Origin: Asparagopsis taxiformis
Lineage: Eukaryota; Rhodophyta; Florideophyceae; Bonnemaisoniales; Bonnemaisoniaceae
Direction of reading: 5' to 3'
DNA: 64,000 nucleotides
Assembly (NCBI GenBank): GCA_030407315.1
Contig: JALQPE010002716.1
Coordinates: 1 to 64,000, forward strand
The notes under the pieces are model-generated. The model was not told the origin of the DNA. It was given only the letters and a program-made list of their open reading frames with translations, and did no database searches. The position numbers and the translations under genes were made by a program. This document shows, piece after piece, positions 1 through 64,000 of the stretch. Every line of letters begins with the position of its first letter. Position 1 is the stretch's first letter.

Positions 1-300
1 CAATACTAGGACCCGACATCCAGTATACAATATATCAGCGAAAACCGGGAGGGAAGACAATTACAGCGGATGGTAATTCAGGGCCCATATCGGACCGTAT
101 TTTATTCTCTCATTTAGGAAACTGCTCGTATACAATACGTCTCTCTAGAATAGGGAATACATATCTGGTCAGAATAGGAAATAAATACCCGGTTAGAATA
201 GGAAATACGTACCATCCCAGAATAGGTTACGTATCCAGCCAGGATAAAATACGTATCCAGCCAGAATACGAAAAGTATCCAGCCAGAATACCTCAGCATA
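1..300. repeat. Left subterminal zone: end of 43-bp array and AGAATAGG repeats
   Basis: Positions 1-23 are the last unit of the 43-bp array seen complete at 35,980-36,411. From about 146 to 295 there are imperfect units of about 24-27 bp, each with AGAATAGG, AGAATAC or a close variant followed by an A/T-rich stretch. The same block recurs at 36,536-36,645 with fewer or altered units. Such subterminal repeats are commonly transposase-binding sites in CACTA/Plavaka-type elements; that role is inferred here. Confidence 0.7.
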
Positions 301-479
301 TCGTCGATCACCCATCTCCCTCACTATCGCGTTCTCCCTACCATCCGAACGCCATGCACACCATCCGCACATACTGCAGAGAACCCTCACGACCTAGATT
401 ACAAAAAATACGCTCCTTCCCAATACCATCCCGCTTTCCTCGACACCCCCCAGCCCATTAAATCATCAAGACATCAAAC

Positions 480-1680
480 ACGAACATGGTCAGCAAAATC
501 TTACACCACTTGAAACCCACTCTCACTTCTATCGTATGCCCCAAAATATACACATACCAGAAACACCTCACAGCTTCATTCCCCATCTTCCTACATCCCT
601 TCTTCACTCTCCTTCAGTCCTGCCGTTCCTGCTTCACCACTCCTGCATCACATACACAACATCAGAATCAACCACAACAGTCAGACTCAAAGCAACGCTA
701 CCACGACAGATATCCTAGAAACTCCCTTACTTACCTCTCCGAGAGGATGACTGAATCATCCATCCTACACAAAAATACAAACCATGATCCAAAAACCTTG
801 CAATGAATAATCAAAGTCAGCAGTCCATATCTTCGCAAAACAAGTCTTGGTGCTCTCAGTAAAACTTACCTTCTGTCATCAACATTTCCTGCATCATCTA
901 CACAACATCGAATCAACCACAACAGTCAGACTCAAAACCAAACTTTCCATCACAGCATACTTTCAAACTCGCACACTTACCTTCGCTCCACACAATACAC
1001 ACCATGACTCAATAGCTTCCAATGAAAAATATCGCATCAACGGAAATAGTCAGACTCAAAACCAACCTTCCCTCGCTGCTTACTTTCAAAACTCGCACAC
1101 TTACTTTACCCGTTCCATCCTGCACACAATAAAAACCATAAATCACGTAATCGTGTAGCCAAGAAAGTAGTCAGCATTCCGCATCTTCGCACAACCGGTC
1201 TGGGCGCCCAATGTGACTTACCTTCCGTCATCACTATTCCTCCATCACCTACGCAACATCGGATTCAATCGCAACAGTCAGATTGAAAACCAACGTTTCC
1301 CTCGCTACATACCCTGAGAACTCGCAAATGTACCTCTCATCCATCCTACACACAATACAAACCATGATCCAAAAACCTTGCAATTAACAATAATCATAGT
1401 CAGCAGTCCATATCTTCGCAAAGCACATCTTGGCACTCAATGAAACTTACCTTCCGTCATCAACATTCCTGCATCATCTACACAACATCGGAATCAACCA
1501 CAACAGTCAGACTCAAAATCAACCTTCCCTCACAGCATACTTTCAAAACTTCACGTACCTCTCTTCCATCCTCCGCTCAATACACACCATCAGTCAACAG
1601 GCTTCCCATGAAAAATATCGCATCAACGGAAATAGTCAGACTCAAAACCCACGCTTCCCTCAACGCATACCCTCGAGGGT
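480..1680 (+). repeat. Subterminal repeats with AGTCAGACTCAAAA motif (E1-L)
   Basis: Six diverged copies of AGTCAGACTCAAAA (or a near variant) lie near 674, 920, 1045, 1275, 1504 and 1632, inside imperfect units that also share ACACAACATCGGAATCAACC and CTTTCAAAACT. The + strand is strikingly poor in G. The same block is at about 36,840-38,040 in E1-R. Short frames in this block are by-products of the composition. No gene is visible. A role as transposase-binding subterminal repeats is inferred. Confidence 0.75.
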
Positions 1681-1696
1681 AGAGGATGGAACGAAG

Positions 1697-1733
1697 GTAC
1701 GTGCGCGAATCTTGACAAGATTCGCGCACGTAC
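1697..1733. repeat. 37-bp palindrome upstream of transposase gene (E1-L)
   Basis: Arms GTACGTGCGCGAATCTTG and its complement meet at a single central base. The E1-R copy (38,057-38,094) is a perfect 38-bp palindrome with TGATCA at its centre, so this copy has lost one T. It separates the G-poor subterminal repeats from the transposase promoter region. It could form a hairpin or be a dimeric protein-binding site. Confidence 0.85.
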
Positions 1734-2330
1734 AAAGCAAAGTCGGTCAAAGAAGATCAGTCGGTGATGAGGGGGAGTGGGAGCCTGCGGCGTCGACCGG
1801 ACAGCTTTCTGCGTCCGCTTAAGTCTTGCTGTGCATACTCGAAATCATCGCCGGCAGTGAGATTGAGTATGGCCCAAGCCATGGTCTCTGATTCCCCGAA
1901 CAAAGAGATCCGGATCGAGAACAACGAATATAAAACATATAATCATATATATGAGAATCCATTTGCTTTCCTTACATGATCTGTGGCATATCCGCTGTAA
2001 AGCACATTCAGATTCCACGAAGTTTGGAAATAAAAAAGTTTATTATTACAAATGAATTAATTGAAAATTCATCTCCCAGGGCAGTCGTTCGTCCTTCCAT
2101 GCACACGTTGCCAGCACGCAATGTGATGTAACAGTTGGAAATGATTGAACTCTCGGTTAAATTCCACCGTTGGGATGTCAGCTGGAGTGAGCACAAAACT
2201 ACTACCCAAAAAACTACGAACACGTTACATTCCAAGTCTCGAAAGCACCACAAAAATAAAATTGGTCGCATCTGGACGCCACAGTCTCCCTGTTCAGCTC
2301 GCAATCCTCCTTTTGCGTCAAAACTCGACA

Positions 2331-5300
2331 TGGAATGCAAGTATGAAGGGTGCTTCTACTACTGCGTAGATGCTTATGCGCTCGCGCTGCATGAGCGAAC
2401 GTGTCGCTACCGTTTTCCACCCCTCTCCCCAACATTTCAACAACGCTCGTGTCCCTGCCGTCACCCATGAGCCTGCTCGAAACGGCCGACCATGATTCCC
2501 CGCAACCCAGCTCCCAGACCCAGAATCTGGTCGTGCTTCCTCCAGCGACTCACCCTGTGACGCTTCGACTGCCACCAACCTCAACCCCCTCCCGCGCAGA
2601 CCTCCTCGTGCAATCCTCGCCGCCAGTCTCACAAACCTCGAGTACAAGGCCGGCGCTGGCCGCGTGAGCGAAGTCATCACCATCCTACAAGACCCCGCAT
2701 TCTCCTAGAAAAGTTCACAGCAGCGCGTTCGCACCGTAGAAGAATGTCGCCACGTTTTACGCTTCCATGGTCGAAAACACATTTCCGCACCGAAGGTTAC
2801 AAGAGCCACATCATTCCAGACAAAACTGGTAAGTACTCGCACAGCTGTACCTCCGCGACCCAGTCGACATGCTCCGCAGGCAGTTAGCACTGGCTAACGA
2901 CCAAAATACTCTCTTCCACCCCTCCCCACAGACCGCCCAGACGGCACCGCAATATTTTCTCATCCCCTACAACAGAATTCGCGAAAACGCTGCACCAGGT
3001 TACTAGACAGCGCGTGCAGCTCTCGGAAGATCCACAGGTCGTATGGGCAGAGGGAAAATGATCGCTTCCTCCTTTGCCGGCCTCCTCCAAGTGTACTCCG
3101 ACAGAGCAGCACAAGCTCAAGAGCTCCGCAATCGTCGCATACCCCATACACGTCACACTGCTCAACTTCTCCGCCCCCCTCCGTCGCCACTGCATCCGTA
3201 CCGGCCTCACCATCGTCGGGTATCTTCCGTACATTGTTAACCCTTCGTCCAACGCCTTGTTCGGTGATGAAATGCGACAACCTCTAGTTCTGCTAGTCGC
3301 GCTCGCAAAATTGATATTCTTCATAAAGCACTCGAAAAAGTGTTTTCGTCCCTATCCACCGCGTTCTCTCCGGGTTCCCCTGCACAGACTCCACTGCAAC
3401 TGCCCGCCAATGCTTTCCATCCTAGCCAATTATTGCTGCGACTTTCCAGAGGCAAAGAGCTCTCATCACTCGCACACCACTCAGCACTACCACCACACAT
3501 CCCTGCCACCGCTGCTACATCCCGCCACTCAACTTGAATCCAGCGCGCCACACCAGCCCCGCTCCCTCGATGATACACGCTCTGCACGCCAAGAGAGCGC
3601 TCAGAGCATACAACTGCTCCGCTCGAAGCTCTCTCCCTCCTCGAACAACACTCTGTCTCGAATCGACCGCTTTTTACCACCAACAGTCCCCTAGACCCCT
3701 ACAACATTTTCTCCTTCGAGCCTCTGCACAATCTCCACCTCGGCATCTCAAAGCTCATCAAACAGTGCATTGTCCACCGCCTCAGCTCCCCAGACACCAC
3801 CACCACTGCCTCCCATTCCGGGACACCCGCACCTTCAAGAAGGTGAAAAAATCCATCCCTCGCCGGCTCAAACAGCATTCTGTCCGCTATCGAACGCGAC
3901 TACTACATCAACGGTCTTCATGTCGACTTCTCAAGGGTGAGAAGGGCACCAATTTGAACGGCCTCTTCACGGAGGACGGCATACGCGGCATGCTCGCAGC
4001 CAAAGACTATCACCATGTCGACATGGTGTTCCCTTTCATCGCAGCATTCATTGACACATGCTGTGACGAAGTAGATACAGCCCCCCTCACTCCATCTGCA
4101 CGCAATACTCTGACCTCGTCGCATGGGTCATGAAACGCGGTCGCATCAAGCACTGGACTGCCGCCGAACTAGAAAGCCTCCAGAAACTCCATTTCCTATT
4201 TCAAACAATCAATGCTCTCCACCCTCGGCCCATTCCACACCACAGGTCTCTCAAAACTTTCAAGTTCCATCTTCTAGACCATCTTCCCGGTGACTTGCAG
4301 AGATATGGCGCCCTGGAACACATTGATGCAGGCCCCTACGAACACTCGCATCTCTGTTCAAACAGAGTTATAGGAAAACTCTCGAAGGCGCTCCACAGCC
4401 ATGGAAGAGACTATCGCCACATGGAATTCTCTTGCCACTCCAACTGGTCATACCCCATCGAACACATGGGAAACGCACGCATGATATCGCCCACAGACGG
4501 TGCAGTACTCGTTCGCGACGGATTCACCGTTGCACTGCACGACTTTGCCTCCCTGCTGCCCGATGCAACCTCCTCGTTGCAGATATCGACGGACAGCCCG
4601 ATCCTGCCACTCTTTTGCCGCTGCACAACTCCTCGTTCCCGTCTGGCACCATAACGCTATTCCAGCAACTCGGTGACACAGCTGCAAAGCGTTCCTCACC
4701 CTCGCTAGACTGCGCGCCACGGCAGAAGGCCCTCCAATACATGACATGGACATTTCCGTCACCGTGGTAAAGTCCGCCTACGTCATGGGAGGGTACGTCC
4801 CAGATGCCGACGACTTTGACCCGCACAGTGGCATGCTTCGCCCCACAAACGTGTCGAGGCACAAGCAGCAGCGCGTCTTTGCAACTTCATCGTTCGGCCC
4901 CGCAAAGAGATCGCAGTACTCCTTTGTCGTCATCTCCGGAACTGCCGATGACTACAGAACCATATGGGTAGGCGCGTCCTGGCACTGGTACGCCTGCAGT
5001 CTCAAAACCTGTTTCAACCTGTAGAACTCGCTTTCGTTCAGTATATGACCTGCTTTGCCCCAAAAACCGCTGTGGAAAAATCACTTGGGTGCATTTGTTT
5101 AAAGTGGTCCACATGGGACCCGGACAACGGATCCGTTGACAGCAATGACACTGCATCCCACAGTGCAGGTGGTCCTTGGTTTGACCTCATCCTGCATCTA
5201 CTATATATCTGGCACCGTGCACATCGTACGAAGTAACTTTCCAGTCAAGCCATTTACGAAACAAATGCACTGGTCGGACCACCGTTTCTATCTCAACCGC

Positions 5301-5353
5301 TTCTACACCCCAACACTGATTACCAATTCACAGATGATAATGAAGAAGAATAA
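2331..5353 (+). pseudogene. Plavaka-like DDE transposase, frameshifted copy (E1-L)
   Basis: This is the same gene as 38,691-41,730, broken by many 1-2 bp indels, so no single frame is longer than about 200 codons. Recognisable pieces include the N-terminal zinc-finger-like segment (CKYEGCFYYC...HERTC), the AYPIHVTLLNF-type segment, the HNLHLGISKLIK segment and the C-terminal KFHLLDHLPGDLQRYGALEH block. At about 3,825 this copy keeps the reading frame (GACACCCGCACC) where E1-R has one extra base. The two copies together therefore support one continuous ancestral frame. Almost all differences between copies are single-base indels, which could be true decay or assembly error. The stop codon is at 5,351-5,353, 77 bp from the convergent coiled-coil gene. 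Confidence 0.8.
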
Positions 5354-5430
5354 ATCTAAATCGCAGCACTCTATTGATAATGTACTACATGATAAACCTT
5401 CTAGTCAACGTCACATTTACTGCACTAATT

Positions 5431-7708
5431 TCAACCATCCTCCATTACGCCAAAACCGTTATCAGCAGTGGCTGCATGGCGCCGCTCCATGCCCCCATAC
5501 TGTGGGGCATTGATTTCGACATTCAGGTTTGCAGTCAGGTGTCCAGCAATATGGGTCAACGACGAAAAGTTCTGCGCCAATTAGTCCTTGCGCAATCACA
5601 CAATCCATTACAGCACCGAGGTTTGACGTAATATGCGATTGAATCCAATCCTCGGACACTAGAACAAGTGATGAGCAGCGGTTTTACATCATCAACGACA
5701 TGAACAATTCCAGACCCTCTCCGCTTTGCCACACTTCAACAGCCTCTCTCGTCACAGTACGGCTTGCAAACACATGCCGTGACTGTGCACTAGTCGCTGT
5801 TCGCTCTCGACAACGTCCGTTTCTTCCCTTGCTTGCGAGCCTTGGAGACAAGACATGCAGTACACCACCATACCAACTAATTGCTGAAAAGCTACCCCCA
5901 CATATGACTGTACCGCCTTGTAAACTCTTCTGCCGTGCACCTCCTTTCCCCTTCGGTTCATCCAAACACCCACAGTAGTCACTAGCCAAGCATCAGGCGC
6001 GCCAGCGTTAGTATGCTCGTCTCTATGTCCATTACTGTTCTGGTCGTATCGAATAACCCTGAAGATGTCCAGCACATTCACAGCTACTCGGTTGTTAAAC
6101 CATGCATCACCATTCACTTCCATTTCGAAGCTGTCAGGAACCAAGCCTTTGCTGTATCGCAGCTCTGAGAACGGTGCCGTTCGCCACCCCCCATATCCAA
6201 ATCACCTTACTTTCCCGTTTCAAAAGCTTCTCAGGACGCTTCGCGCTTTTGTTCCTCTCGCTCGTCCATCTCAGCTCGCGTCGTCAGCATCGTGCATCTA
6301 GACATTAATTTCGTGTACCCCAGCGAACCGAACAATCTGTCCCTCGCATTACGCTTCCGTGCACTCATCACGTCGGACAGTTTCTGCGTCACCTTCACTT
6401 TCAATTCCTTGCTCCCCGCCACAGCCTCTTGACAGCACACACGCTGCTCCTCATCGGAAAACACATCACACCACGGACTTTGACGCAGTACGTGTCGCAC
6501 CAAGTCATTCAGCAGATCACTCTCGTCCCTGTACGAAGGTGTATACCACTGCAGATTCTTGATGATATAGCCCGGAGGGGTAGCAATATATCCTACACCG
6601 TTTTCGCTCCAAAGTGCCCCTTCTACCGGCTCTACCTCGATGGTACGTCCAGTCCAACGTCTCTGCGTTTGTTCCGCTATAGGGTCCAGCTCCATAGTCT
6701 CGTTCTTGCACCACTTTGTCAGGTTTTCCTCAACCGCCCTAAGAACTCCAAGGTATTTCACAGGAATGGCTTTCTGTATTTTCGACTTACCGCCACCGTG
6801 ATCACTGATTCTACCTGTTCTCGCAATTGCAGTAAGGCTGGCATTTTCCGCCTGCAGAGTCTTCACCTTAGCCTCCAACGCAACAATCTCCGTGGTGAGC
6901 GCCTTGTTTGCTATGTCCTGGCTAAACACTTTTTTTTCCAGCTCCGCGATCTTCTTCTTCTGCGCATTGATGCGACTCGCCATTAAATCGATGGATTCCG
7001 GCGGATGCAACCTCTCTGCCCTCACCGTCCCCCCATCTCCCACGCTATCGGGAATATGATGTCCTCCATCGCCAATAGCCTGACGTCGCGGGGGCGTTAC
7101 GCGCATATTTGGCACCAATGACACTCTGTTGTGACGAGGCCCGCACTCCGGCTGCTCTCTCCCCTCAGTACCACCTGACCGCCGATGATAGTTGGCATCC
7201 TGTGAACGTTGCTCAGAAACAACATCCCTTGCCGCTATCCTCGGGTCCCTGACTGCATTACCTGCTGGGGCTGATGTACTCGGCATAGTTGGCGCAGTGG
7301 GGGTCACAGCCTCCAGTGTGTCGGAAGCCCCCGGCTGGGACTCCGTCTGCAGCACCTCCGCATCTGCCAACCCGGGAGGAACTACCTTTGCCATAGCACT
7401 CTGCCGCAATTCCAACATGTTTTGAGCCACTATCATGTCATCATCATGATGTTCACTGTCCCTGCGAGCACGCTTGCCTCGGTCAAGCCCCATCTCTCTC
7501 CGCGCCGTTCCTCCTTCCTCACTTTCTCGCTGCGGATCCCCAGTTCTGCGCCGGTCCGTCTTGCGACTACCGGACCGCGGTCAATGCTGCCGGTAGGCCC
7601 AGACCGCTTCTTCGCACGGGATTGTCGGGCACTCGATACAGCAGCTGCTGACCGGGTTTTCTGGAGGCCCGGAGGCTTTGGAGCTTTCTTCGCAATACGC
7701 GGCGGCAT
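5431..7708 (-). pseudogene. Coiled-coil accessory protein of E1, frameshifted copy
   Basis: The likely start is the ATG at 7,708 (MPPRIAKKAPKPPGLQK), which is missing from E1-R. The frame breaks at about 7,583 (one base fewer than E1-R). It then stays open for 420 codons (7,493-6,231) and breaks several more times before the stop at 5,431. Visible parts: a basic, disordered N terminus; a heptad-rich coiled coil from ASRINAQKKKIAELEKKV to about AKVKTLQAENASLTAI; and a conserved-looking C-terminal half with aromatic and helical segments (for example KLSDVMSARKRNARDRLFG). I do not recognise the family. It converges on the transposase gene, as accessory second genes often do in large transposons, so a role as a transposition or DNA-binding partner is inferred only from position. 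Ancestral length is about 755 codons. Confidence 0.65.
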
Positions 7709-7864
7709 AATGAAGCTTTCCCGGAAGCGATGGAACGATTGAGTTGCACGAGATACAAAAAAGATTGCTGTATAGTGTCGGTAACCACAACGGTCTGCGA
7801 TGAACGTTCAGGTCAGGTCAAGTACCGGATAATACGCCAACAGCCCAGATTGTATACGGTAGGC

Positions 7865-8500
7865 AGTCATCAACAGTATTTAATGAGGTACAATTACAGC
7901 TGTCGAGCTAGGCCGCGAGCACCCCTATGTCCGGAAGACGTCCTGATTTGAATTAAAATTTGGGCTATTCTCAAAAACATGCACATGTGAACATGTTTTT
8001 GAGATGGGGGTGTGCCGTACGGCACAATCGACCGCCCAAATCGATGTTTTTTGCAATATTTTTTTGTGCCCGAAATTTTAGAATTTCTGGGCTGGCCAGC
8101 AATGCAATCGAGCTGGACATCCACCGGACGTCCATTTCAGGTTGGTCGTGAGAGAGCGGGGCGGGACCATGATGGAACAAGGACCAAGACCTGTCCCTGG
8201 CGTATTGAGCCTGAAATTGACCCTTCGTCAGACGCCATTTAGCCTTACAGTTGGTGCTTACAGAAGCCAGTGATGACCCCGCTCGGGGCGGCGGTCGGTT
8301 CCTGGGGCCGTTGTGGCCAAATTAGACACCCTGATTTGAATTAAAATTTGGGCTATTCTCAAAAACATGCACATGTGAACATGTTTTTGAAATGGGGGTG
8401 TGCCGTACGGCACAATCGGCCGCCCAAATCAAGGTTTTTTACAATATTTTTGCTGCCCGAAATTCTACAATTTCTGGGCTGGCCAGTAATGCATTAGCTA
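7865..8500 (-). repeat. Palindrome-bearing repeat units of E1, reverse orientation
   Basis: One full unit of about 390 bp (about 7,945-8,335) and one partial unit (about 8,335-8,500), in reverse orientation relative to the arrays at 13.5-14.6 and 19.2-21.1 kb. Each carries the perfect 14-bp palindrome GTGCCGTACGGCAC (8,012-8,025 and 8,400-8,413). Next to it is an imperfect palindrome built on AAAAACATG...CATGTTTTT, and the full unit also has GGACATCC...GGACGTCC. A boundary block (AGGGGTGCTCGC...GACAGCTGTAATT on the minus strand, about 7,870-7,945) recurs in the opposite orientation at about 14,615-14,675. The array lies upstream of the coiled-coil gene start. Confidence 0.85.
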
Positions 8501-8960: not shown

Positions 8961-8964
8961 GTTT

Positions 8965-51627: not shown

Positions 51628-51881
51628 CATGGCAATGGGATGGTTTTGGGAACGAAGGAATTGTGTGTGGGAAGTCCTTCGTCGAGGAATGACAGATGGC
51701 CGAATACAATTGGAGCGCGTGGAAGGTGAATCAATAACTGATATTTCACGTTTAAACGTGTAGGGAGATCGTTTCCCGCCAAATACCACCTTGAAAGAGG
51801 AATATCTCTTGATCGTGTAGTCGGAGAGAAAAGGTGTCTTTGTCATCCTGAACGGCTTCTCTACGCGTCCAAATCTTTGCA

Positions 51882-55406: not shown

Positions 55407-55462
55407 TGAAGGGCATCTGTCCAGCCGTGTTGAAGCCTTAGTTGGGTATGAATCCGTAGAGT

Positions 55463-55468
55463 AATAAA
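55463..55468 (+). promoter_or_regulatory. Candidate poly(A) signal of gene D
   Basis: AATAAA 57 bp after the gene D stop codon. Confidence 0.45.
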
Positions 55469-55724
55469 CACAATTCCAATAGAACATGATAAAAGAGATA
55501 CTGCATGGATTCTTTATATAGTCAGATCAACTTCACAAATGTAACAAACACCACATGCAGAAAGCTATTCTCCACAGAAAGCTCTAGCTACAAGAGCTGC
55601 AAATTCTAAACCTCTTCATTAGATGCGAGAAACGATAGCAGATAGTAAAACCTGGTATTATAATACATCGTTTACTATCCCCGGTAAAATTTTCAGTTCC
55701 TGAGAACAGGAGTCTGGCCGGGTA

Positions 55725-56450
55725 TAAAGTTGGGTGGGTGTAGACCAAGTGCACCAACCCCATTGCCTGGGGGTACTCCGGATAACCTCAGCCAATGGCG
55801 TTGGTGCACCTGGCTTTTGGGAGGCCAAAATAATACCCGGTATTATTTTGGGTCGGTATAGACCAAGTGCACTAACCCCATTGGCCGGTGGTAGCCGGAT
55901 ACCCTCGGCCAATGGCGTTGGTGCACCTGGCGTTTGGGAGGCCAAAATAATACCCGGTATTATTTTGGGTCGGTATAGACCAAGTGCACCAACCCCATTG
56001 GCCGAGGTTGTCCAAACTACCACCGGCCAATGGCGTTGGTGCACCTGGCTTTTGGGAGGCCAAAATAATACCCGGTATTATTTTGGGTCGATATAGACCA
56101 AGTGCACCAACCCCATTGGCCGGTGGTAGCCGGATACCCTCGGCCAATGGCGTTGGTGCACCTGGCGTTTGGGAGGCCAAAATAATACCCGGTATTATTT
56201 TGGGTCGGTATAGACCAAGTGCACCAACCCCATTGGCCGGTGGTAGCCGGATACCCTCGGCCAATGGCGTTGGTGCACCTGGCGTTTGGGAGGCCAAAAT
56301 AATACCCGGTATTATTTTGGGTCGGTATAGACCAAGTGCACCAACCCCATTGGCCGAGGTTGTCCAAACTACCACCGGCCAATGGCGTTGGTGCACCTGG
56401 CGTTTGGGAGGCCAAAATAATACCGGGTATTATTCCTAGTTTCTCAAGCC
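55725..56450. repeat. Palindromic array 2 of E2: six 117-118 bp units
   Basis: GAGGCCAAAATAATACCCGG recurs at 55,821, 55,938, 56,056, 56,173, 56,290 and 56,408. Around each centre the flanks pair over about 46 nt per arm (CCAATGGCGTTGGTGCACCT against the complement of a GTGCACCAACCCCATTGG flank). Each unit is therefore a palindrome of about 93 bp. Units alternate between variants (AGCCGGATACC or GTTGTCCAAAC spacers). It lies between genes D and E, about 450 bp before the gene E start. Frames on both strands come from the mostly 117-bp (39 x 3) period. Confidence 0.95.
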
Positions 56451-56901
56451 AGGTGCAGTGCACTCATTGGCCGAAGCCCACTTATTCGTGGTTCATGTTG
56501 AATACAGATGCATTTGGTATGTACGCATCAGCTCCACGAGTTGGTGCAAAATGCTGGGAAGTATGTGACTTCAGCATTATGTAGTTATTACTTGAGTGGT
56601 TTTGGGGTAATCACCATGACCAACTCGTACCTGTTTAGCCACTTTGAGTGTGAACTCGTCGTATAGCGATTGTATTTGGCCGCAGAAATTAACTGAATTT
56701 CGAGTATTACTCTTGATCTGAGTCAAGTGGTCTAGAAATAAACAAAAAATTGAAATCAGAGTTGAAACGGATTGTTCACGTTTGATCCTTTATCAGACTG
56801 CAGTAGCGAAATAAATCTATCTTAATCGTCTCTGTATCGTCGTTATCGGGGTCGTACACTCAATCAAGCTTCTCTCCATTCCTGCTTTCCATCATCCTTC
56901 A

Positions 56902-59871
56902 ATGGCTCCTCGCACTCGCTCCAAACCCTCTGCCCCCGCCCCTGCTCGCGCTTCGACTCGCGGTCGGGCCTCCGCTCGCTCTCGCGCCCCTTCTCGCTCT
57001 CGCGCCCCTTCTCGCTCTCGCGCCCCTTCTCGCAGCCCTGGTCACGATAACTCTGTCACCGCCGAGGTTCAGTTGTCAGACTGTCCCAAAGCTGACCACA
57101 GGCTGTCTCCCTTGGATTTGCACAGACCCCCCCTATTCTCTCGTCATATTAGGGAAGGGAGAGTGCTTGAGCTGAAGGAGAAGTTCCTGAGGGAAGGATT
57201 CACCTCCTCAATCTCCCGAATCCTTGCCTGCAAAATGCTCCTTCCCAGTGAAGGCAGCACAACCCCCACCCTTCAAACGTTCTACATCGATGGTGGCCAT
57301 CGCGTTGCGGCTCTCCAGAAGTGCATTCGTGAAGACCCGGAAGGGCAACATCCGTATGCTGCGTCATTCAGGAACATCGATGTGGCTTTGATCAGGCGCC
57401 CAGGGACAGAAGAAGTTTCCGATGAGTACTTCACACCTTTTGAAGTACTCGGGCTGTCCATTCAAGCAAACACACTCACGCATGATGTTGCCCTTGTTTC
57501 TTTGGCAGACCGAGTGTGTTCTGTGGTCCAACTGCTCACGACCAAGGACATGTTGGGTGAACCGAATCGGAAGTGCATTCAGGTCATCATGGACAGCCAG
57601 TTGTCGATATCGAAACTGGGCTACCAAGCCATCAACAAGCACGTGACTGCTGCGAAAGGCTTCCGGACTGTGAACAACAAAGCGCTTGAGTTCTGGAGTT
57701 CCGTACCGAGCATGTTCACCAAGGAAATTCTCGCTGCGGAACAGGAAAGGGCCGTTAAAGAAGGCCGTGACATCAACGACGATGTCTTCAAGCAGTCCGT
57801 AGACATGTATGGCTGCAACATGGATCTCGTTTTCATGGCAGACTTCCGTCGCGGCTCGGAGTATCAGCAAAGGTTCATCTTGCTCATAACAGCTCTCTGG
57901 ACACGCATGCGAGATCTGCGTCAGTTGAGTAGGACGACAAGAGGATTTGGTAATCCTTTCGTTCGTGTTTTGATTGAAGTGTTCAAGATGTCCGAGCCGG
58001 TTGCTGCTCACAAAATGATGGAGCCTCCGCTCGACCATTTCTACTCCGAGCTCAAGAACACTGGGTCAGGAAAGGAGACTGTTATTGCGAACAGTATCGC
58101 GGAGACCCTCCTGCACTTCAATACCGACGATAACAGCGGTACGAAGCATGCTCTCGTCTCCGACGAAATGTATGAGCAGCTTCGCTTTTCCACGGGCGTT
58201 GTGGACATGGAAGAAGACCAAAGGGTCATTGTTCACAATGAACAGCCATCTGAAGATGCGCCGAAGCCATCTACGCCCCAATCAGATGAGCCTTCTACCC
58301 CTTCTACCCGTTCTGGTCCTACTCCTCCTGCCCCTTCTACCCCTCCTGCTCCTTCTACCCCTCCTGCTCCTCGTGCTCATTCTACCCCTTCTACTCCTTC
58401 TACCCCTTCTACCCCTTCTACCCCTTCTACCCCTTCTACTCCTGCTCCTACTACCCCTCCTCCTCCTGCCACTTCCGTTCCCGCCCCTTCCACCCCTCCT
58501 GCTACCCCTCCTCCTGCCGCTTCCGTTCCCGCCCCTTCCACCCCTCCTGCTACCCCTCCTGCTCCTGCCACTTCCGTTCCTGCAGTTGAGCAGGCTCAAG
58601 GAACCCCTGATGCCACTGTGGCAGGTTCTGAGAAGCAATTGGGATCTGTTCTCCTCCGTCTCCCTCTCAATGCACCACCGCTTGCGGTGAATGAGCCAGT
58701 CGAGACACTTCGCAGGTCGAAACGGCAGAGAACGGAGAGTCTACGGGTTGGCGGCGACAGTCAGGCAGAGTCGGAGGTAGAAGAAGAGTCCGAAGAGCCC
58801 CTTCCGAAGCGCGGAAGACTGGAAGCTAACCGTACGGTGAAACGTTCAACCGAGGAGATTCCATTGTTCAGCGATGAGCAGGAAAATCCCCTCCCCGACA
58901 GGGTAGTCGATGAACGGATTATGGATATTCTCCCGAACACCATACCGTCAGACTCTAGGGTCAAGTACTATATCGACAGCAAGCTGTACGAAACAATCCG
59001 ACAGGAGATTTTGAGTGCAGCTGCTGCCGATATGAATTGTATAGCGTGCAGTGGTCCAGCTTGCTGTGCAGAGAAGTTCTTTGCAACAGCTAGGTCAACT
59101 CTCAATCTCTTGGGTGCCCATGTACTCAGTGGTATCTTCCGTTCTTCGACTGTGGGCAACGCAGCACATGAACTGTTCACGTTCTACGCCCAGAAGTTCA
59201 AACCTGTTCATTCTTCTGCTGAAGACAGTTCCAATGATCCCTGGCATCAGATTCGAAACAAGGGTGAGGTAACAGCAGAGCAACAGGCCTCTCGTTTGGG
59301 AAGGTTCTCTATCTCAAGGAAGAAGATTTGCGACGATCTCGAGCAGATGGATGAACATCAATTCAAGAACAAGATGATTCTCGAGGTCGGCAAAGCAATC
59401 TGTGCCGAGCTAATGTACTTGGGCCTAGGAATCCATGAGCCTGTGGCCTTTCCTAAAACCGGTTTACGTCTTTTGCTGACCTCTGATGGTGCTCCAGATC
59501 AAGACTTGCACACAGACCTACCGGTGGTCATCAATGATTCCGATTTCCCACCTGGAAGATCGTACTTTCTGATGGCAAGCGCGGCTGATGGGTTCTGGCT
59601 TCGTGGAGCGTATTTCAGCCACGTCTGTTTGACGCGTGCAGACGCTGAGAAGTACAAGACGCCTGTTATGGACATCTACGTGCCACCGTATTCTCTCTTC
59701 ATCGGTCGTGGTGACTTCTACCATGGAGGCAAGGGATTCAGTAGTTCAGCGGAAAATCGCCTAACATATGGTCTTCCGGTTCGTTCTCATCTCTACCTTT
59801 TAAGTGACGAAGAAGAATTGGCGGATGCTATCGAAACAGTCAACTACTGGGATGCACCTAGTGCGCGATAA
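56902..59871 (+). CDS. Gene E: ParB-like domain fused to 2-oxoglutarate/Fe(II) dioxygenase
   Basis: 989 aa, intact, ATG in TTCAATGGC. An Ala/Ser/Arg repeat N terminus (SRAPSRSRAPSRS, residues 23-50) precedes the ParB-like domain with FYIDGGHRVAAL (His133-Arg134). IRRPGTEEVSDEYFTPFEVLGLS and THDVALVSLADRVCSV follow. A Pro/Ser/Thr repeat linker (58,290-58,590) and basic clusters (LRRSKRQR) lead to the dioxygenase: HTD (His870, Asp872), YFLMASAADGFWL, PPYSLFIGRGDFYHGGKGF (His941) and PVRSH (Arg961). Collinear with gene D along both domains, so D and E are tandem duplicates that diverged mainly in the N terminus and linker. Same inferred role; two copies may target different sites or act as a pair. 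Array 2 lies upstream and array 3 downstream. Confidence 0.86.
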   Translation: MAPRTRSKPSAPAPARASTRGRASARSRAPSRSRAPSRSRAPSRSPGHDNSVTAEVQLSDCPKADHRLSPLDLHRPPLFSRHIREGRVLELKEKFLREGFTSSISRILACKMLLPSEGSTTPTLQTFYIDGGHRVAALQKCIREDPEGQHPYAASFRNIDVALIRRPGTEEVSDEYFTPFEVLGLSIQANTLTHDVALVSLADRVCSVVQLLTTKDMLGEPNRKCIQVIMDSQLSISKLGYQAINKHVTAAKGFRTVNNKALEFWSSVPSMFTKEILAAEQERAVKEGRDINDDVFKQSVDMYGCNMDLVFMADFRRGSEYQQRFILLITALWTRMRDLRQLSRTTRGFGNPFVRVLIEVFKMSEPVAAHKMMEPPLDHFYSELKNTGSGKETVIANSIAETLLHFNTDDNSGTKHALVSDEMYEQLRFSTGVVDMEEDQRVIVHNEQPSEDAPKPSTPQSDEPSTPSTRSGPTPPAPSTPPAPSTPPAPRAHSTPSTPSTPSTPSTPSTPSTPAPTTPPPPATSVPAPSTPPATPPPAASVPAPSTPPATPPAPATSVPAVEQAQGTPDATVAGSEKQLGSVLLRLPLNAPPLAVNEPVETLRRSKRQRTESLRVGGDSQAESEVEEESEEPLPKRGRLEANRTVKRSTEEIPLFSDEQENPLPDRVVDERIMDILPNTIPSDSRVKYYIDSKLYETIRQEILSAAAADMNCIACSGPACCAEKFFATARSTLNLLGAHVLSGIFRSSTVGNAAHELFTFYAQKFKPVHSSAEDSSNDPWHQIRNKGEVTAEQQASRLGRFSISRKKICDDLEQMDEHQFKNKMILEVGKAICAELMYLGLGIHEPVAFPKTGLRLLLTSDGAPDQDLHTDLPVVINDSDFPPGRSYFLMASAADGFWLRGAYFSHVCLTRADAEKYKTPVMDIYVPPYSLFIGRGDFYHGGKGFSSSAENRLTYGLPVRSHLYLLSDEEELADAIETVNYWDAPSAR

Positions 59872-60195
59872 TCTGCAAGAATACTGCTTTGCCTCTCCCT
59901 CTACAGGCAGCATCTGCCAATCCTAAGCTAGCTTCGGTAGTATACTTCCTTTACCACAACTAAATCTACTCCTATTCACGACTTTGAAAATATTAGCACG
60001 GTCAGTCTACTGCACTATTAGAGTTCCTCTACCTCTCACCCCGCATAGCTTCTACACCCTACATCGTACAGACTGATCTCTTTTCCTTTCCTACATGCAT
60101 GGCACAGTTTTGCAAGACTGCCACAATTCCACATCACTCGAGTAACCAAGGTCTTGAATTGTTCTTCTTAGTATACTAACTGTAGTTGAGATGCA

Positions 60196-61220
60196 AACCT
60201 GGCAGCCAATGGCAGAGCTGCACTTGGGCTGGCCACACCCAAAATAATACCCGGTATTATTTTGGCATGGCAAAGCCCAGGTGCAGCAATTCCATTGGCT
60301 GCCGCTGCGTTCATGACAGCCAATAGCAGAGCTGCACTTGGGCTGGCCACACCCAAAATAATACCCGGTATTATTTTGGCATGGCAAAGCCCAGGTGCAG
60401 CAATTCCATTGGCTGCCGCTGCGTTCATGACAGCCAATAGCAGAGCTGCACTTGGGCTGGCCACACCCAAAATAATACCCGGTATTATTTTGGCATGGCA
60501 AAGCCCAGGTGCAGCAATTCCATTGGCTGCCGCTGCGTTCATGACAGCCAATAGCAGAGCTGCACTTGGGCTGGCCACACCCAAAATAATACCCGGTATT
60601 ATTTTGGCATGGCAAAGCCCAGGTGCAGCAATTCCATTGGCTGCCGCTGCGTTCATGACAGCCAATAGCAGAGCTGCACTTGGGCTGGCCACACCCAAAA
60701 TAATACCCGGTATTATTTTGGCATGGCAAAGCCCAGGTGCAGCAATTCCATTGGCTGCCGCTGCGTTCATGACAGCCAATAGCAGAGCTGCACTTGGGCT
60801 GGCCACACCCAAAATAATACCCGGTATTATTTTGGCATGGCAAAGCCCAGGTGCAGCAATTCCATTGGCTGCCGCTGTGTTCATGACAGCCAATAGCAGA
60901 GCTGCACTTGGGCTGGCCACACCCAAAATAATACCCGGTATTATTTTGGCATGGCAAAGCCCAGGTGCAGCAATTCCATTGGCTGCCGCTGCGTTCATGA
61001 CAGCCAATGGCAGAGCTGCACTTGGGCTGGCCACACCCAAAATAATACCCGGTATTATTTTGGCATGGCAAAGCCCAGGTGCAGCAATTCCATTGGCTGC
61101 CGCTGCGTTCATGACAGCCAATGGCAGAGCTGCACTTGGGCTGGCCACACCCGAAATAATACCCGGTATTATTTTGGTATGGCAAAGCCCAGGTGCAGCA
61201 CTATCATTGGGCGTGGGCTG
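60196..61220. repeat. Palindromic array 3 of E2: nine 114-bp units
   Basis: GGCCACACCCAAAATAATAC recurs every 114 bp from 60,231 to 61,143 (last unit with CCGAAATAATAC). Each unit is an imperfect palindrome of about 101 bp. Arms of 50 nt run from GCAGCCAATGG through GCTGCAC and TGGGCT to CCAAAATAATACC, with roughly 40 of 50 positions paired. Units differ by single bases only (CAATAG/CAATGG, GCGTTC/GTGTTC). It lies between the convergent genes E and C, so it is downstream of both. Frames of more than 300 codons on both strands are due to the 38 x 3 period. Confidence 0.96.
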
Positions 61221-61359
61221 ACTGGCACCGCTCAGCAAATGAAAGTCTGTTATTATCGCTCAGGTAGATTGTAGTACTACAACGTTGTACGAGTTCAGAT
61301 GCAAGACTTTTTATTGCTGATGGTACTCTTGATATCTGTAATTGGACGCGTATACTGTC

Positions 61360-64000
61360 CTACTTCTCTGCAGTCCAGTAGCGCGATCCATAGTCAACGA
61401 ATATCTCTTCCCCAGCTCGAACATCTACTACAACCTGCGCTAGGATGAGATCAGGTTTTGCTACTGCATACTTGAAGTCGCAAGTAGGATTGACGTCTTT
61501 GTGAACTCGGAACTCTGCATTTTTTCTGCGTTGCACATTTGCAACTCTCTCCATTCCGTCAATGGTCCTACTGTCGTTGAGGTAGCTGCAGACATTGTAT
61601 TCCGCTGGTACAAGATATATCTTGTCGACCGGTGCTTCTTCTCCGATGACACTGGTCTCCATCTCCATGTTGAAGTTTTGGAATCTTTCACCAGTACAAC
61701 CGAACCCGTCCGGTCCGTACAAGCGACTGCGTTGCGGTTCATTCTCCCCAATCTTCCCGTATAAAATTGTCCCATTATACCATCCAACAACAGAGCCCCT
61801 CTCTAAATCTTCTGCGGCAAAAACCCCCAATCCTCCCTCTCGAACTGTCGATGCAGCAACAATAACGTTGTGAAAGGAGGCATCTACTGCAAGCATCATC
61901 TCAGGGTCAACGGAGAAAACCTTGCCTAAATCTTCTACGCCCCATTCATTCATTGGGACTTCGGCAAGTCTTCGGAGCATGCTTTGATCCCGCGCAACAG
62001 AGGAGACAAATCGCAACATATGCAGTGGTAGTGAAGATACCGACGGGAATCCATCAGGCGCATCACTTCGATGTCGAAGTCTTTCACTTCCTACATTGCT
62101 CCTTATCGAGTAATTCCATTCTTTGTTAGCGAGAATACTCGATATGTCATTTTTGGTTGCCTCCCCAAAAACTCCATCTCGACCTTGCCTAACAAAGCAA
62201 TCCAGCAACAACGGCTGAGCTGATCCATGGCATGTGGCGTCTTTTTCACATCCAATAAACTTGCGATACAGACCATCTCTCATTGTCATGCAAGCTATTG
62301 CAGTAGAATACGTTCCGGAGAATAGATCTACCACAATGTCTCCTGGCTTTGAAAACCTTGAAATAAGCTCTCGAAGTATGGACAGAGGCTTCTGCTCCGC
62401 ACGTAGCCTTTTGTCTTCGAAGTTCAATGACTCACCAGGTCCGAGCTTTGGGCAGTTGTCGATTGCGTTCACGTACCCTGGATGTCGTGAAAGGTCACGG
62501 TTATGCAAAGAATAATCAACCATTTCAAACGCGGCAGCTCCCATCCCACGTTTGAAACTGTGCACAACAAACTCGTGAATGTTGTGTAATGAACACGATT
62601 TGTTCATTGGGTTTTGGATGAATACGTAGGGACGACGGCTTAGAATGAGAGGAACATCGTCTGTACGCATGGATTGTTCCCCGCTTTCTGCATTTTGAAG
62701 AGCTTCTCCCCACCCAACCAACTGTTTGATACTGGAAAATATCAGGGCATGTCCTCCAGGGCGCAGCATTCGAGAAATGTCCTTTCCAGTACGAAACATT
62801 TGTGCGCTATTGATGTCATCATAGTCTGAATTGGTCTTGCCTTTCTCCCTCCGCGTGTTGAAGGGTGGATCGGTGAGCACAAGTTGTGCTTGTCCATCAA
62901 TAGTATTCCCTGAAAGCATGCCAATGGAATCAGTGTTAACCCGGTGCACTAACCTCGAGGCTGTACAGTTGTAAGCCACGCAAAATCTCTTCATGACCTT
63001 TTTCAATTGCACAATATGATCCGGTACCCCCTCTTCCTCACCCACTGCCTCCGCTGACGGTGTATCCTCCGCAACATCTTGCATAACCGTGTCCACTGCG
63101 GACGAAGCCCTCCCATCCATGCTGGATGTATACTGGGATCCAGAGTCATTGGTAGGTTTCCTTCCACCTGTACCTAAACGGCGAGTGCTGTGCTGCATTG
63201 ATTCATTCGACTCAAGACGATCTCTTTCTCGAGAAAGAGATCTGGATGCTGCGTTGCGCTGTTCAGTCTCGTAGAGAATTTTCAAGTCGCAGACATCAAC
63301 TGGCTTCACACGCATTTCACGGTTCCAGTTCTTCCATACCTTGAGTCTTTCGTGACCATCCAATGCGATGGATTGTTCTATTCTTGCTTCGATGAAGGCG
63401 TTCAATCCGAACCGGTCAGGCTGATGGAAAAATTTAGTGCGCAGCCCTTCCATCTGGTTCGTACTTGATCCGAATACATCAATGCCTATCATACAGTCAT
63501 ACACAGACACTAGTACGGCTTCTGTCAAAGACCTCAACCTTGCATCAACAGAGATATCCAAAGTGCCTGGATAACCTGCATTCTCGCGGAGTTTCACTAC
63601 CGGGGACGGAAGCAGAAGATCTGAGTAGTGGTCAGGATGTGCCCACCCGTCAGTACGATTAGCAAGACAGATGAATTGGAATTTCTCAGAGTCGAAAACC
63701 ATGTATGGGCGACACATCATGTAGGCGCTTTCGAAGCCCAGAATCATCGCTGTTGTATCCCAGGCAGACATGACCCTTTCCAAAACGACACCCACAGACT
63801 CTCCGTTTGCTCTTGTGCGCTGGAAAGGGGCGAATGTAGAAGTCTCTGTATCCCTCCCAGTTCTACGACGCTTCCTACCCCGGCGAATGGGTGCATTTCT
63901 GCGTCTAGTGAGGGCAATGTGCACAAATGAAATCATAAACATCAGCCTTCCAAATACTTTGTCTTCTTCTGTTAATGTTCTACCCTGTGCACTTCTTCCA
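61360..64000 (-). CDS. Gene C: beta-class DNA amino-methyltransferase fused to SET domain (5' end outside window)
   Basis: The ATG at 63,942 is not a convincing start. The frame stays open to the window edge, and alignment with gene A (PYMVFDS near 63,700 against PYIIFDS at about residue 270 of gene A) shows that some 200 or more N-terminal residues are missing. Visible: a shared N-terminal helical domain; a Ser/Arg-rich linker; LVLTDPPFN (Asp at 62,871-62,869); RPGGHALIF; RAEQKPLSILREL; then VVDLFSGTYST (motif I, Leu where gene A has Pro). The SET domain has GGLGVFAAEDL, SYLNDSR, NAEFRV and EEIFVDYG and ends at 61,360. Same order of motifs as gene A. Predicted to methylate adenine N6 or cytosine N4 in DNA and possibly lysine in a histone; neither shown. 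Convergent with gene E across array 3. Confidence 0.86.
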   Translation of the reverse strand, partial: GRSAQGRTLTEEDKVFGRLMFMISFVHIALTRRRNAPIRRGRKRRRTGRDTETSTFAPFQRTRANGESVGVVLERVMSAWDTTAMILGFESAYMMCRPYMVFDSEKFQFICLANRTDGWAHPDHYSDLLLPSPVVKLRENAGYPGTLDISVDARLRSLTEAVLVSVYDCMIGIDVFGSSTNQMEGLRTKFFHQPDRFGLNAFIEARIEQSIALDGHERLKVWKNWNREMRVKPVDVCDLKILYETEQRNAASRSLSRERDRLESNESMQHSTRRLGTGGRKPTNDSGSQYTSSMDGRASSAVDTVMQDVAEDTPSAEAVGEEEGVPDHIVQLKKVMKRFCVAYNCTASRLVHRVNTDSIGMLSGNTIDGQAQLVLTDPPFNTRREKGKTNSDYDDINSAQMFRTGKDISRMLRPGGHALIFSSIKQLVGWGEALQNAESGEQSMRTDDVPLILSRRPYVFIQNPMNKSCSLHNIHEFVVHSFKRGMGAAAFEMVDYSLHNRDLSRHPGYVNAIDNCPKLGPGESLNFEDKRLRAEQKPLSILRELISRFSKPGDIVVDLFSGTYSTAIACMTMRDGLYRKFIGCEKDATCHGSAQPLLLDCFVRQGRDGVFGEATKNDISSILANKEWNYSIRSNVGSERLRHRSDAPDGFPSVSSLPLHMLRFVSSVARDQSMLRRLAEVPMNEWGVEDLGKVFSVDPEMMLAVDASFHNVIVAASTVREGGLGVFAAEDLERGSVVGWYNGTILYGKIGENEPQRSRLYGPDGFGCTGERFQNFNMEMETSVIGEEAPVDKIYLVPAEYNVCSYLNDSRTIDGMERVANVQRRKNAEFRVHKDVNPTCDFKYAVAKPDLILAQVVVDVRAGEEIFVDYGSRYWTAEK

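What the first reader, a model, noticed from the sequence alone, without database searches (positions are those of the whole stretch)
1..64000. Two divergent giant transposons carry the same kit: transposase, DNA methyltransferase-SET, ParB-dioxygenase and private palindrome arrays
Seen: E1-L (1-22,732) and E2 (44,031-64,000) share no close repeat sequence, and their cargo genes are strongly diverged. Yet each contains a DDE transposase gene, a beta-class methyltransferase-SET gene and one (B) or two (D, E) ParB-dioxygenase genes. In both, families of palindromic repeats sit beside these genes. Independent upkeep of the same set argues for a working system. Known parallels: fungal KDZ transposons are associated with TET/JBP dioxygenase genes; Arabidopsis VANDAL elements encode VANC proteins that bind short motifs in the element and remove its methylation; bdelloid rotifers use a bacterial-type N4-cytosine methyltransferase fused to a chromodomain. 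Inference: a transposon-encoded write/erase system that marks or unmarks its own copies.
Basis: partly seen in the sequence, partly recalled or inferred. Interest (0 to 1): 0.96.

Follow-up and report, generated by a model that had tools for sequence, protein, structure and literature searches.

The report
Giant transposons with private methylation kits

Summary
E2 is a complete 25.8-kb CACTA-ended element (44,031-69,816, GCT duplications) inserted into an E1 copy. E1 is a Plavaka element with a 34-bp terminal repeat of its own. A third family, E3 (CACTA end, at least 16.9 kb), repeats E2's gene order at 29-46% protein identity. Each family encodes a beta-class DNA methyltransferase fused to SET, plus DGxHR (ParB-type) proteins ending in an HxD...H...R domain. 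Spacing is fixed across contigs: E1 14 of 16 and 11 of 11, E2 29 of 30, E3 12 of 12 testable pairs. Family-private palindromes lie between the genes: 6301, 2333 and 8988+4817 exact sites genome-wide, reversed controls 0. New: the E2 and E3 writers also carry the erasers' ParB-like domain, one putative shared address reader; E1's writer does not. Weak points: no library, PDB or structure result supports the dioxygenase call (motif only); E2's transposase rests on a weak match, a motif and its ends; no binding, methylation or expression data; species unnamed. Reading: a selfish, family-addressed write/erase epigenetic system that would work like VANDAL/VANC or En/Spm TnpA with unrelated, partly prokaryote-type machinery.

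The parts
1..22732 (.). E1-L: E1-family giant element, left end cut by the contig start; right terminus at 22,732 (reads inward CGTCTGTGTTCTCGGAAATGGACGCGGACGTCCA)
   Evidence: terminus shared with 35850 and with two other loci (C1833, C2532).
2145..5350 (+). Plavaka-type transposase of E1-L (small indels relative to E1-R)
   Evidence: tblastn of the E1-R transposase; 98% DNA identity to E1-R; indels.
5434..7580 (-). C: coiled-coil accessory protein of E1 (function unknown; a TnpA-like role is only a guess)
7936..9770 (.). E1 palindrome array 1 (sites at 8011, 8399, 9658)
10104..13301 (+). E1 writer: beta-class N6_N4 DNA methyltransferase (TDPPYN, then DPFSGT) fused to SET; no DGxHR motif
   Evidence: Pfam; identical protein in 43 of 43 scored copies; motifs.
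13455..14604 (.). E1 palindrome array 2 (13643, 14031, 14516), inverted relative to array 1
15118..18897 (+). B, E1 putative eraser: DGLHR ParB-like domain plus C-terminal HND...H...R dioxygenase-like domain (1403-aa ORF in 35 of 37 scored copies)
19165..21085 (.). E1 palindrome array 3 (19288, 19791, 20180, 20680)
35850..44030 (.). E1-R, left part: terminus 35,850, 43-nt tandem array 35975-36412, transposase, C; interrupted by E2; resumes beyond the window at 69,817
38505..41730 (+). Plavaka transposase of E1-R (two overlapping frames 38505-40313 and 40066-41730)
   Evidence: PF18759 E 4.6e-25 in the first frame; same family as the 1036-aa ORFs.
41808..43640 (-). C ORF of E1-R
44031..64000 (.). 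E2: CACTA-ended element, window part (whole element 44,031-69,816; termini CACTAC...GTAGTG; 3-bp GCT duplications)
46598..50341 (+). E2 transposase-like ORF (PCHxC motif; no Pfam hit)
50601..51619 (.). E2 palindrome array 1, 104-nt units x 9.8
51852..55406 (+). D: DGGHR ParB-like domain plus HTD...H...R domain
55730..56434 (.). E2 palindrome array 2, 117-nt units x 6
56815..59871 (+). E: DGGHR ParB-like domain plus HTD...H...R domain, Pro-rich repeats between
60203..61200 (.). E2 palindrome array 3, 114-nt units x 8.8
61360..64000 (-). E2 writer, window part (gene continues to 64,884): ParB-like (DGAHR) plus N6_N4 DNA methyltransferase (TDPPFN) plus SET, 1174 aa; the ParB-like part lies beyond the window

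Best explanation
Each family is a DNA transposon whose own genes likely form a family-addressed epigenetic switch: ParB-like domains would recognise the element's private palindromes and bring there a predicted DNA-plus-histone methyltransferase (writer) and predicted 2-oxoglutarate dioxygenases (erasers). Shown: mobile units with defined ends (both ends for E2; each end seen in some copy for E1; right end only for E3), fixed gene order and spacing, near-identical copies, palindromes private to each family and placed between genes, and one homologous DGxHR domain in the E2 and E3 writers and the erasers. Inferred: the DGxHR domain reads the palindrome (as ParB reads parS); the DPPY/F methyltransferase makes N6-methyladenine; SET methylates a histone; the HxD...H...R domain oxidises a methyl mark. 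Committed mechanism: the erasers keep the family's copies out of silent chromatin while the writer re-imposes or limits a family mark, so every new copy is recognised by its operators in trans and the element escapes silencing without derepressing the rest of the genome. How E1's writer, which lacks the DGxHR motif, would be addressed is open.
For: Kit in three families, E2 and E3 with the same order MT(-), a(+), c(-) after (+)-strand dioxygenase-type genes at 29-46% identity. Linkage (midpoint distances): E1 MT 8.1-8.4 kb downstream of Plavaka on the same strand in 14 of 16 testable cases, B 13.4-13.8 kb in 5 of 5, B after MT in 11 of 11; E2 E-MT convergent within 3.3-7.2 kb in 29 of 30; E3 D-MT convergent at 4.2-5.2 kb in 12 of 12. 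Palindromes: 6301, 2333, 8988 and 4817 exact sites, reversed controls 0; in the stretches in hand each occurs only in its own family (E1 19, E2 17, E3 10 and 5 exact sites; 0 across families and 0 in SET-less-writer stretches). E1: columns -69 to +22 around the site are at least 0.89 conserved in 19 copies, while flanks drop. E2: 18 of 21 core columns identical among four arrays of otherwise different units. E2 and E3 share TACCSGGTA. ParB: PHROG ParB-like partition family E 3.3e-6 (E2 writer) and 0.0023 (E3 writer); hhalign erasers to SET-less writers E 2e-6 (probability 78%), to E2/E3 writers 4e-4 (14%), controls 0.2 or worse. dN/dS 0.15-0.17 for E1 MT, 0.04-0.06 for part of the transposase in two of three pairs.
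Against: No Pfam, NCBIfam, PHROG or PDB match to any oxygenase for the C-terminal domain; structure models failed (pLDDT 38 and 35). Eraser N-termini have no ParB hit of their own in PHROGs; Pfam ParB_N was not hit by any of the window's proteins or their close relatives scanned. The prokaryotic-type ParB profile matches only the E2/E3 writers (E 0.003, probability 4%), not the erasers (0.4) or SET-less writers (0.8). E1's writer has no DGxHR. SET-less writers (C609, C197) lie in fetched stretches with no eraser and no repeated palindrome, so a writer can travel without the rest. dN/dS of B is 0.43, of the E3 writer 0.48, of C 0.41 and 0.70, on few changes; the C1833 writer copy has one in-frame stop. 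The palindrome itself is invariant by construction, since copies were found by exact match, and that comparison was ungapped, so indels lower the flank values. No methylation or binding data.
Confidence: 0.5

Rival explanations
1. The palindromes are binding sites of the transposition machinery (the transposase or the C/a/c accessory proteins, like TnpA at subterminal repeats of En/Spm), and the methyltransferase and dioxygenase act genome-wide without an address.
For: E1, E2 and E3 all carry accessory ORFs of unknown function (C; E2 and E3 a and c), which diverge between E2 and E3 about as much as the writers do (33-40% against 43%), so co-divergence does not choose between them. The E1 writer has no DGxHR. 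TnpA is known to activate Spm with demethylation (passage in PMC10398659).
Against: The arrays are internal, between genes, and not confined to the ends. The stretches with SET-less writers have no repeated palindromes although one of them also holds further ORFs.
Confidence: 0.25
2. Cargo without a joint function: chromatin genes were captured, stay intact because copies are young, and the palindromic arrays are recombinogenic repeats homogenised by gene conversion.
For: Copies are near identical; the writer cassette occurs in two orientations between inverted arrays; one E3 copy fuses transposase and dioxygenase ends; a SET-less writer lies in a 17-kb stretch without eraser.
Against: Same gene set and order kept at 29-46% protein identity; conservation in the arrays is concentrated in dyad blocks; dN/dS below 1 where defined.
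Confidence: 0.15
3. Inter-element warfare or self/non-self marking: the writer protects the family's own sites, the erasers strip rival families' marks, as in a modification and anti-modification contest.
For: Mutually inserted families with different palindromes in one genome (E2 inside E1; E3 inside an E1 methyltransferase gene on C348); DGQHR/DGQQR proteins serve prokaryotic DNA-modification conflict systems (passages in PMC4619093 and PMC10853773).
Against: No nuclease or toxin family was recognised in the E1 and E2 ORFs scanned (E3 was not scanned as a whole); no evidence of cross-family action.
Confidence: 0.1

Closest known systems
VANDAL/VANC sequence-specific anti-silencing (Arabidopsis MuDR-type transposons)
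   Same: A transposon-encoded protein acts in trans on its own family through short motifs multiplied in noncoding tandem repeats; motif and protein diverge together between families (passages of PMC5735166 and PMC10398659).
   Different: In the passages seen VANC is a DNA-binding anti-silencing protein, with a 9-base motif arrayed in one orientation and no writer. Here other superfamilies (Plavaka/CACTA), palindromes, ParB-like domains, a DNA methyltransferase-SET and dioxygenase-like proteins.
Fungal TET/JBP-carrying transposons (KDZ, Plavaka, EnSpm, Helitron and others; Kojima 2025)
   Same: DNA transposons, Plavaka and EnSpm included, carrying a dioxygenase proposed to escape methylation silencing (abstract and passages of PMC12730594).
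   Different: The dioxygenase-like domain here hits no TET/JBP model; ParB has 0 occurrences in that paper; no methyltransferase-SET partner or private palindromes in the passages seen.
HarbingerS/MuDR elements with SET genes; retrotransposons with cytosine methyltransferases
   Same: Transposons carrying a histone or DNA methyltransferase (Kojima's introduction; de Mendoza 2018 seen only in a reference list).
   Different: Here one polypeptide joins an N6_N4-type DNA methyltransferase to SET, with a putative eraser partner.
Amoebidium 'Plavaka giant repeats'
   Same: Giant (up to 50 kb) Plavaka-flanked clusters of intron-poor genes in a protist (passages of PMC11244446).
   Different: Many of the genes there encode tyrosine recombinases; no methyltransferase-SET, ParB or palindrome arrays in the passages seen.
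Bdelloid N4CMT
   Same: Bacterial-type N6_N4 methyltransferase at work in a eukaryote and coupled to histone marks (passages of PMC8885841).
   Different: Host gene that silences transposons, fused to a chromodomain; not transposon-borne.
Prokaryotic-type ParB_N plus N6_N4 methyltransferase fusions; DndB/GmrS DGQHR/DGQQR proteins
   Same: Same domain pairing (P0014, P0026, P0043, source organisms not named); same DGxxR signature, placed in the ParB/Srx fold.
   Different: No SET or dioxygenase domain in the three fusions; not seen on eukaryotic transposons.

Membership tests
CACTA/EnSpm transposon (E2, E3) | 5'-CACTA...TAGTG-3' termini and 3-bp target duplication | tested here: met
   E2: CACTAC...GTAGTG, GCT on both sides. 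E3: CACTACGG right end shared by C436 and C348 in different flanks; left end not fetched.
CACTA/EnSpm transposon (E2) | EnSpm/CMC-type transposase | tested here: inconclusive
   No Pfam hit; PCHxC region aligns weakly to E1 Plavaka, E 0.008, probability 5%.
Plavaka transposon (E1) | Plavaka transposase domain PF18759 | tested here: met
   89 bits over a cut-off of 26.3, E 4.6e-25.
Plavaka transposon (E1) | TGT..ACA or CATCA..TGATG ends with 2-3-bp TSD (fungal PlavakaA/B in PMC12730594) | tested here: not met
   Four ends read CGTCTGTG...; TSD not testable, no copy with both ends in hand. So a Plavaka-type transposase, not a PlavakaA/B element.
Beta-class N6_N4 DNA methyltransferase | PF01555 over cut-off; DPPY/F motif IV before motif I | tested here: met
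   56.8 and 52.9 bits against 26.7; motif order in E1, E2 and E3.
Beta-class N6_N4 DNA methyltransferase | Methylates DNA (6mA or 4mC) | not testable with these tools
   No modification data.
SET histone methyltransferase | PF00856 over cut-off | tested here: met
   29.5 (E1) and 25.9 (E2) bits against 22.4; E3 by colinear alignment to E2.
ParB/Srx superfamily | Significant profile match | tested here: met
   E2 and E3 writers: PHROG ParB-like E 3.3e-6 and 0.0023; Pfam ParB_N not hit. Erasers only through writer profiles; their own scans failed.
ParB/Srx superfamily | NTP binding and sequence-specific palindrome binding | not testable with these tools
   Motif DGxHR only.
2-oxoglutarate/Fe(II) dioxygenase | HxD...H...R in a double-stranded beta-helix | tested here: inconclusive
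   H, D, H and R invariant in 5 of 5 sequences (B has HND, the rest HTD); no library or PDB match to an oxygenase; fold models unusable.
TET/JBP | Profile match to a TET/JBP family | tested here: not met
   No TET/JBP hit at E up to 10 for full-length B, D and E (D had only a chance Cys_knot row).
VANC-type anti-silencing system | Trans-acting loss of methylation at motif-bearing copies | not testable with these tools
   Anatomy alike; function untested.

The most novel reading that the evidence does not exclude
Probability: 0.35. Interest if true: 0.96.

Novelty: new variant of a known kind. Interest (0 to 1): 0.85.

Why it matters
Transposon-encoded anti-silencing is known from few proteins (VANC, TnpA, proposed for fungal TET/JBP). 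Here both a predicted writer and predicted erasers sit on the same element, share one prokaryotic-type address domain in E2 and E3, and lie beside private palindromes that occur thousands of times. If binding is shown, the palindromes and ParB-like domains would be ready-made orthogonal parts for locus-addressed epigenome editing, and the families would be a natural experiment on how address and reader co-evolve. It also makes testable whether beta-class DNA methyltransferases put adenine or N4-cytosine marks into eukaryotic chromatin together with histone marks.

Tried and rejected
Led nowhere: homologues of E1 B and of the E2 E dioxygenase domain in 5.8 billion proteins (none at E<=0.001); AlphaFold models of both domains (pLDDT 38 and 35; no fold search was run on them); PDB profile searches (none, or unrelated chance rows); naming the species (18S search gave no usable answer, and was not repeated; the genome carries no name). 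Literature: nine searches answered, listings only except the papers cited; none listed a transposon with methyltransferase-SET and ParB-dioxygenase; the library lacks most subscription papers and holds no preprints.

Considered and rejected: single-copy host genes (fixed linkage in many contigs); promoter repeats only (arrays also lie between convergent 3' ends, e.g. 60203-61200 and 67101-67275); E1-L as an odd rearrangement (its arrangement is the common one, 14 of 16; the opposite writer orientation occurs in C444, C206, C178, C1833, C2532 and E1-R).

Limits of the counts: genome searches score only part of the first-look candidates (PF01555 150 of 2605; Plavaka 123 of 1208; B 37 of 4686; E1 MT 43 of 4133; E 46 of 16473; E2 MT 52 of 3575; E3 D 37 of 7338), and first-look candidates are not gene counts; linkage could be tested only on contigs where both genes were listed. 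In one search, 107 of the 150 rows were used (E1-type, about-64-bit and lower-scoring or partial rows dropped); this left out C2735, whose listed methyltransferase is of another family about 16 kb away. In one search, C476 (opposite strand, -7.7 kb) and a second E copy on C1778 (45.8 kb away) do not fit. One search used only palindromes with full 150-bp flanks; one search used 26 of the 27 units (the last unit of the 117-nt array left out). The DGxHR motif is in 9 of the 11 closest public relatives; P0006 and P0007, about 500 aa, lack it.

Full report
What the window is. The window is bases 1-64,000 of a 90,465-base contig of an unnamed 141.5-Mb genome. The genome looks eukaryotic: Ty3/gypsy ORFs, a copia-like ORF (by eye), SET domains, a histone-H3-tail ORF. 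No species name could be obtained.

Element E2. Extending the contig shows that E2 is a complete element of 25,786 bp, 44,031-69,816. It starts CACTAC, ends GTAGTG, and is flanked on both sides by GCT, which is the CACTA/EnSpm pattern. It lies inside an older E1 copy (E1-R: 35,850-44,030 and 69,817 to about 79,502), which had already lost the stretch between C and the middle of its methyltransferase gene. Gene order: transposase-like (+) 46,598-50,341; D (+) 51,852-55,406; E (+) 56,815-59,871; methyltransferase gene (-) 61,360-64,884; accessory a (+) 65,490-66,989; accessory c (-) 67,595-69,124. The transposase call rests on the CACTA ends, a PCHxC motif and a weak profile match to the E1 transposase (hhalign E 0.008, probability 5%; controls 0.04 and 0.21).

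Element E1. Four ends share CGTCTGTGTTYTCGGAARTGGACGCGGACGTCCA (window 35,850 and 22,732, C1833, C2532). The transposase is Plavaka (E 4.6e-25) and is the abundant 1036-aa family. Order in E1-L: Tn(+), C(-), array, MT-SET(+), array, B(+), array. From listed positions alone (midpoints), MT lies 8.07-8.43 kb downstream of Plavaka on the same strand in 14 of 16 testable cases, B 13.4-13.8 kb downstream in 5 of 5, and B follows MT by 4.8-5.7 kb in 11 of 11. In C444, C206, C178, C1833, C2532 and E1-R the writer cassette is flipped; its two flanking arrays are inverted repeats of each other (373 nt, 96%), so inversion by recombination between them is the likely cause.

A third family, E3. The commonest score class among the 150 scored methyltransferase rows (65.6 bits, ORFs up to 1186 aa) was opened on C436, with a near relative on C348. 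C436 holds a ParB-dioxygenase-type ORF (1253 aa, +), a ParB-like/methyltransferase/SET ORF (1186 aa, -) and E2-like accessory ORFs in E2's order. Its right end, CACTACGG, is the same in C436 and C348 in different flanks, on C348 within an E1 methyltransferase gene; the left end was not fetched, so E3 is at least 16.9 kb. E2-E3 identity: methyltransferase 43%, dioxygenase type 29-41%, transposase part 46%, a 33%, c 40%. An ORF upstream joins a transposase N-half to a dioxygenase C-end, as an internal deletion would leave. E1's methyltransferase-SET is 23-24% identical to those of E2 and E3, colinear over about 880 residues, which suggests that the fusion is ancestral to all three.

Linkage of the kit. 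E2: E and methyltransferase convergent, 3.3-7.2 kb apart, in 29 of 30 testable cases; the thirtieth is a second E copy 46 kb from the listed gene. E3: 12 of 12 convergent at 4.2-5.2 kb. Copies are near identical (E1 MT 43 of 43, E2 MT 52 of 52 scored copies at 100% rounded). The cargo is therefore part of recently spread mobile units and not single-copy host genes. The scored rows are the best candidates, so identity is biased upward.

Palindromes. E1: TGTGCCGTACGGCACA, 10 perfect copies in E1-L and no other site in the window within 3 mismatches; 6301 exact genomic sites, 0 for the reversed control. Around 19 sites with full flanks, columns -69 to +22 are each at least 0.89 conserved, while columns further out mostly fall to about 0.4-0.8 (ungapped comparison; the 16-bp site itself is invariant by selection); the block holds a second dyad, CTCAAAAACATG-N10-CATGTTTTTGAG. 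E2: AATAATACCSGGTATTATT, 2333 sites, control 0; all 27 near-matches in the 84-kb stretch fall inside E2. Four arrays with different unit lengths (104, 117, 114, 91 nt) share 18 of 21 core columns but only 6 of 84 flank columns (null mean 1.4, 14 of 5000 shuffles reach 6; 26 of 27 units used); CCAATG and CACYTGG half-sites recur beside the core (by eye). E3: TCATCGTWACGATGA (8988 sites; arms up to 32) interleaved with TTTTACCSGGTAAAA (4817 sites), controls 0. In the stretches in hand no palindrome occurs outside its own family, and none in the two SET-less-writer stretches. E2 and E3 share TACCSGGTA; E1 does not. Arrays lie at gene starts and also between convergent 3' ends, so they are not simply promoters.

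Domains. Writers: PF01555 and PF00856 over cut-off in E1 and E2; motif order DPPY/F before the SGT motif marks the beta class. That DPPY points to adenine is recalled, not tested. The N-termini of the E2 and E3 writers hit PHROG ParB-like partition families (E 3.3e-6 and 0.0023). ParB_N plus N6_N4 methyltransferase fusions of prokaryotic type exist (P0014, P0026, P0043). Relatives without SET (C609, C197, L003) and 9 of the 11 closest public relatives (P0001-P0011, 36-65% identical) carry the same DGxHR signature. Erasers B, D, E and E3-D carry DGxHR too; their profile matches the writer profiles (hhalign E 2e-6, probability 78%, to SET-less writers; 4e-4, 14%, to E2/E3 writers; control segments 0.2 or worse), but not the prokaryotic-type ParB profile (0.4). 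These are E-values of single pair comparisons. The E1 writer has none. DGQQR/DGQHR proteins are placed in the ParB/Srx fold in PMC4619093 (passages). The C-terminal domain keeps H-x-D, H and R in 5 of 5 sequences together with an SH and a PP pattern, typical of 2-oxoglutarate oxygenases (recalled); no library, PDB or model result supports it.

Selection. dN/dS: E1 MT 0.17 and 0.15 (one in-frame stop in the C1833 copy), transposase part 0.04 and 0.06 (0.61 on three changes in a third pair), B 0.43, C 0.41 and 0.70 in two pairs and undefined in a third, E3 MT 0.48; all on few changes. This agrees with active writers and transposase in E1; it is weak for the erasers.

How it most likely works. 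Shown are unit structure, spread, private palindromes and shared domain. Inferred: ParB-like domains load at the palindromes; the writer sets an adenine mark and a histone mark; the dioxygenases remove a mark; the element thereby controls its own chromatin in trans. The nearest functional parallels are VANC (private motif arrays, co-divergence; passages of PMC5735166, PMC10398659) and TnpA (passage of PMC10398659). Rivals: palindromes serving the transposition proteins (0.25), cargo without joint function (0.15), inter-element conflict (0.1).

Novelty. Transposon-borne dioxygenases, SET genes and DNA methyltransferases are each known (PMC12730594 abstract and passages; de Mendoza 2018 seen only as a reference). 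A writer and an eraser with a common ParB-like module and private palindromic operators were not in the listings of the nine literature searches answered. A new variant of transposon self-regulation, with a clear route to 'categorically new' if binding and chemistry are shown.

Noticed in passing
window 25487-26956 (-): 489-aa ORF whose N-terminal 54 residues from the first Met match histone H3 1-46 (MAKTKQTAKKSTGG...; PDB H3 chains, best E 5e-7), continuing into an unrelated stretch without Pfam hit: a histone-H3-tail mimic beside a Ty3/gypsy element.
   Followed up: partly
window 7936-14604; C444, C206, C178, L042-L043, L045-L046: The E1 writer cassette occurs in both orientations between inverted palindrome arrays: an invertible segment, perhaps an expression switch, perhaps only recombination.
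   Followed up: partly
L051-L052 (C609), L049 (C197), L003: SET-less writers: DGxHR plus N6_N4 methyltransferase (C609 and C197 with a C-terminal Cys-rich tail, by eye), no eraser in the C609 and C197 stretches; on C609 beside a 730-aa ORF that may be a transposase. Public relatives P0001-P0011 at 36-65% identity.
   Followed up: partly
L040:8094-9998 (contig 82,094-83,998), minus strand: Another SET-less writer fragment, 45% identical to the C609 one, on the same contig.
   Followed up: no
L044:1270-7526: Beside an E1 copy on C2532: an E2-type transposase (36% to E2) and an eraser-type C-terminus (26-36%), probably a further family.
   Followed up: no
L047:1-2733; L048:9088-9684: L047: ORF joining the N-half of an E2-like transposase to a dioxygenase C-end, an internal-deletion derivative or chimeric protein. 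L048: a further eraser-type fragment.
   Followed up: no
window 22610-25320 (+): Ty3/gypsy-type RT-RNaseH-integrase ORFs abutting the right end of E1-L; described only.
   Followed up: no
window 38057-38094 and 45745-45790: Long perfect palindromes (38 and 46 bp) in E1-R upstream of the transposase and in the left part of E2, different from the array palindromes.
   Followed up: no
window 58291-58580: Pro/Thr/Ser-rich short tandem repeats inside gene E; the ORF length varies between genomic copies.
   Followed up: no
window 2145-7580: Transposase and C of E1-L carry many 1-2-nt indels relative to E1-R, while the methyltransferase ORF is intact: decay or assembly errors near the contig end.
   Followed up: no
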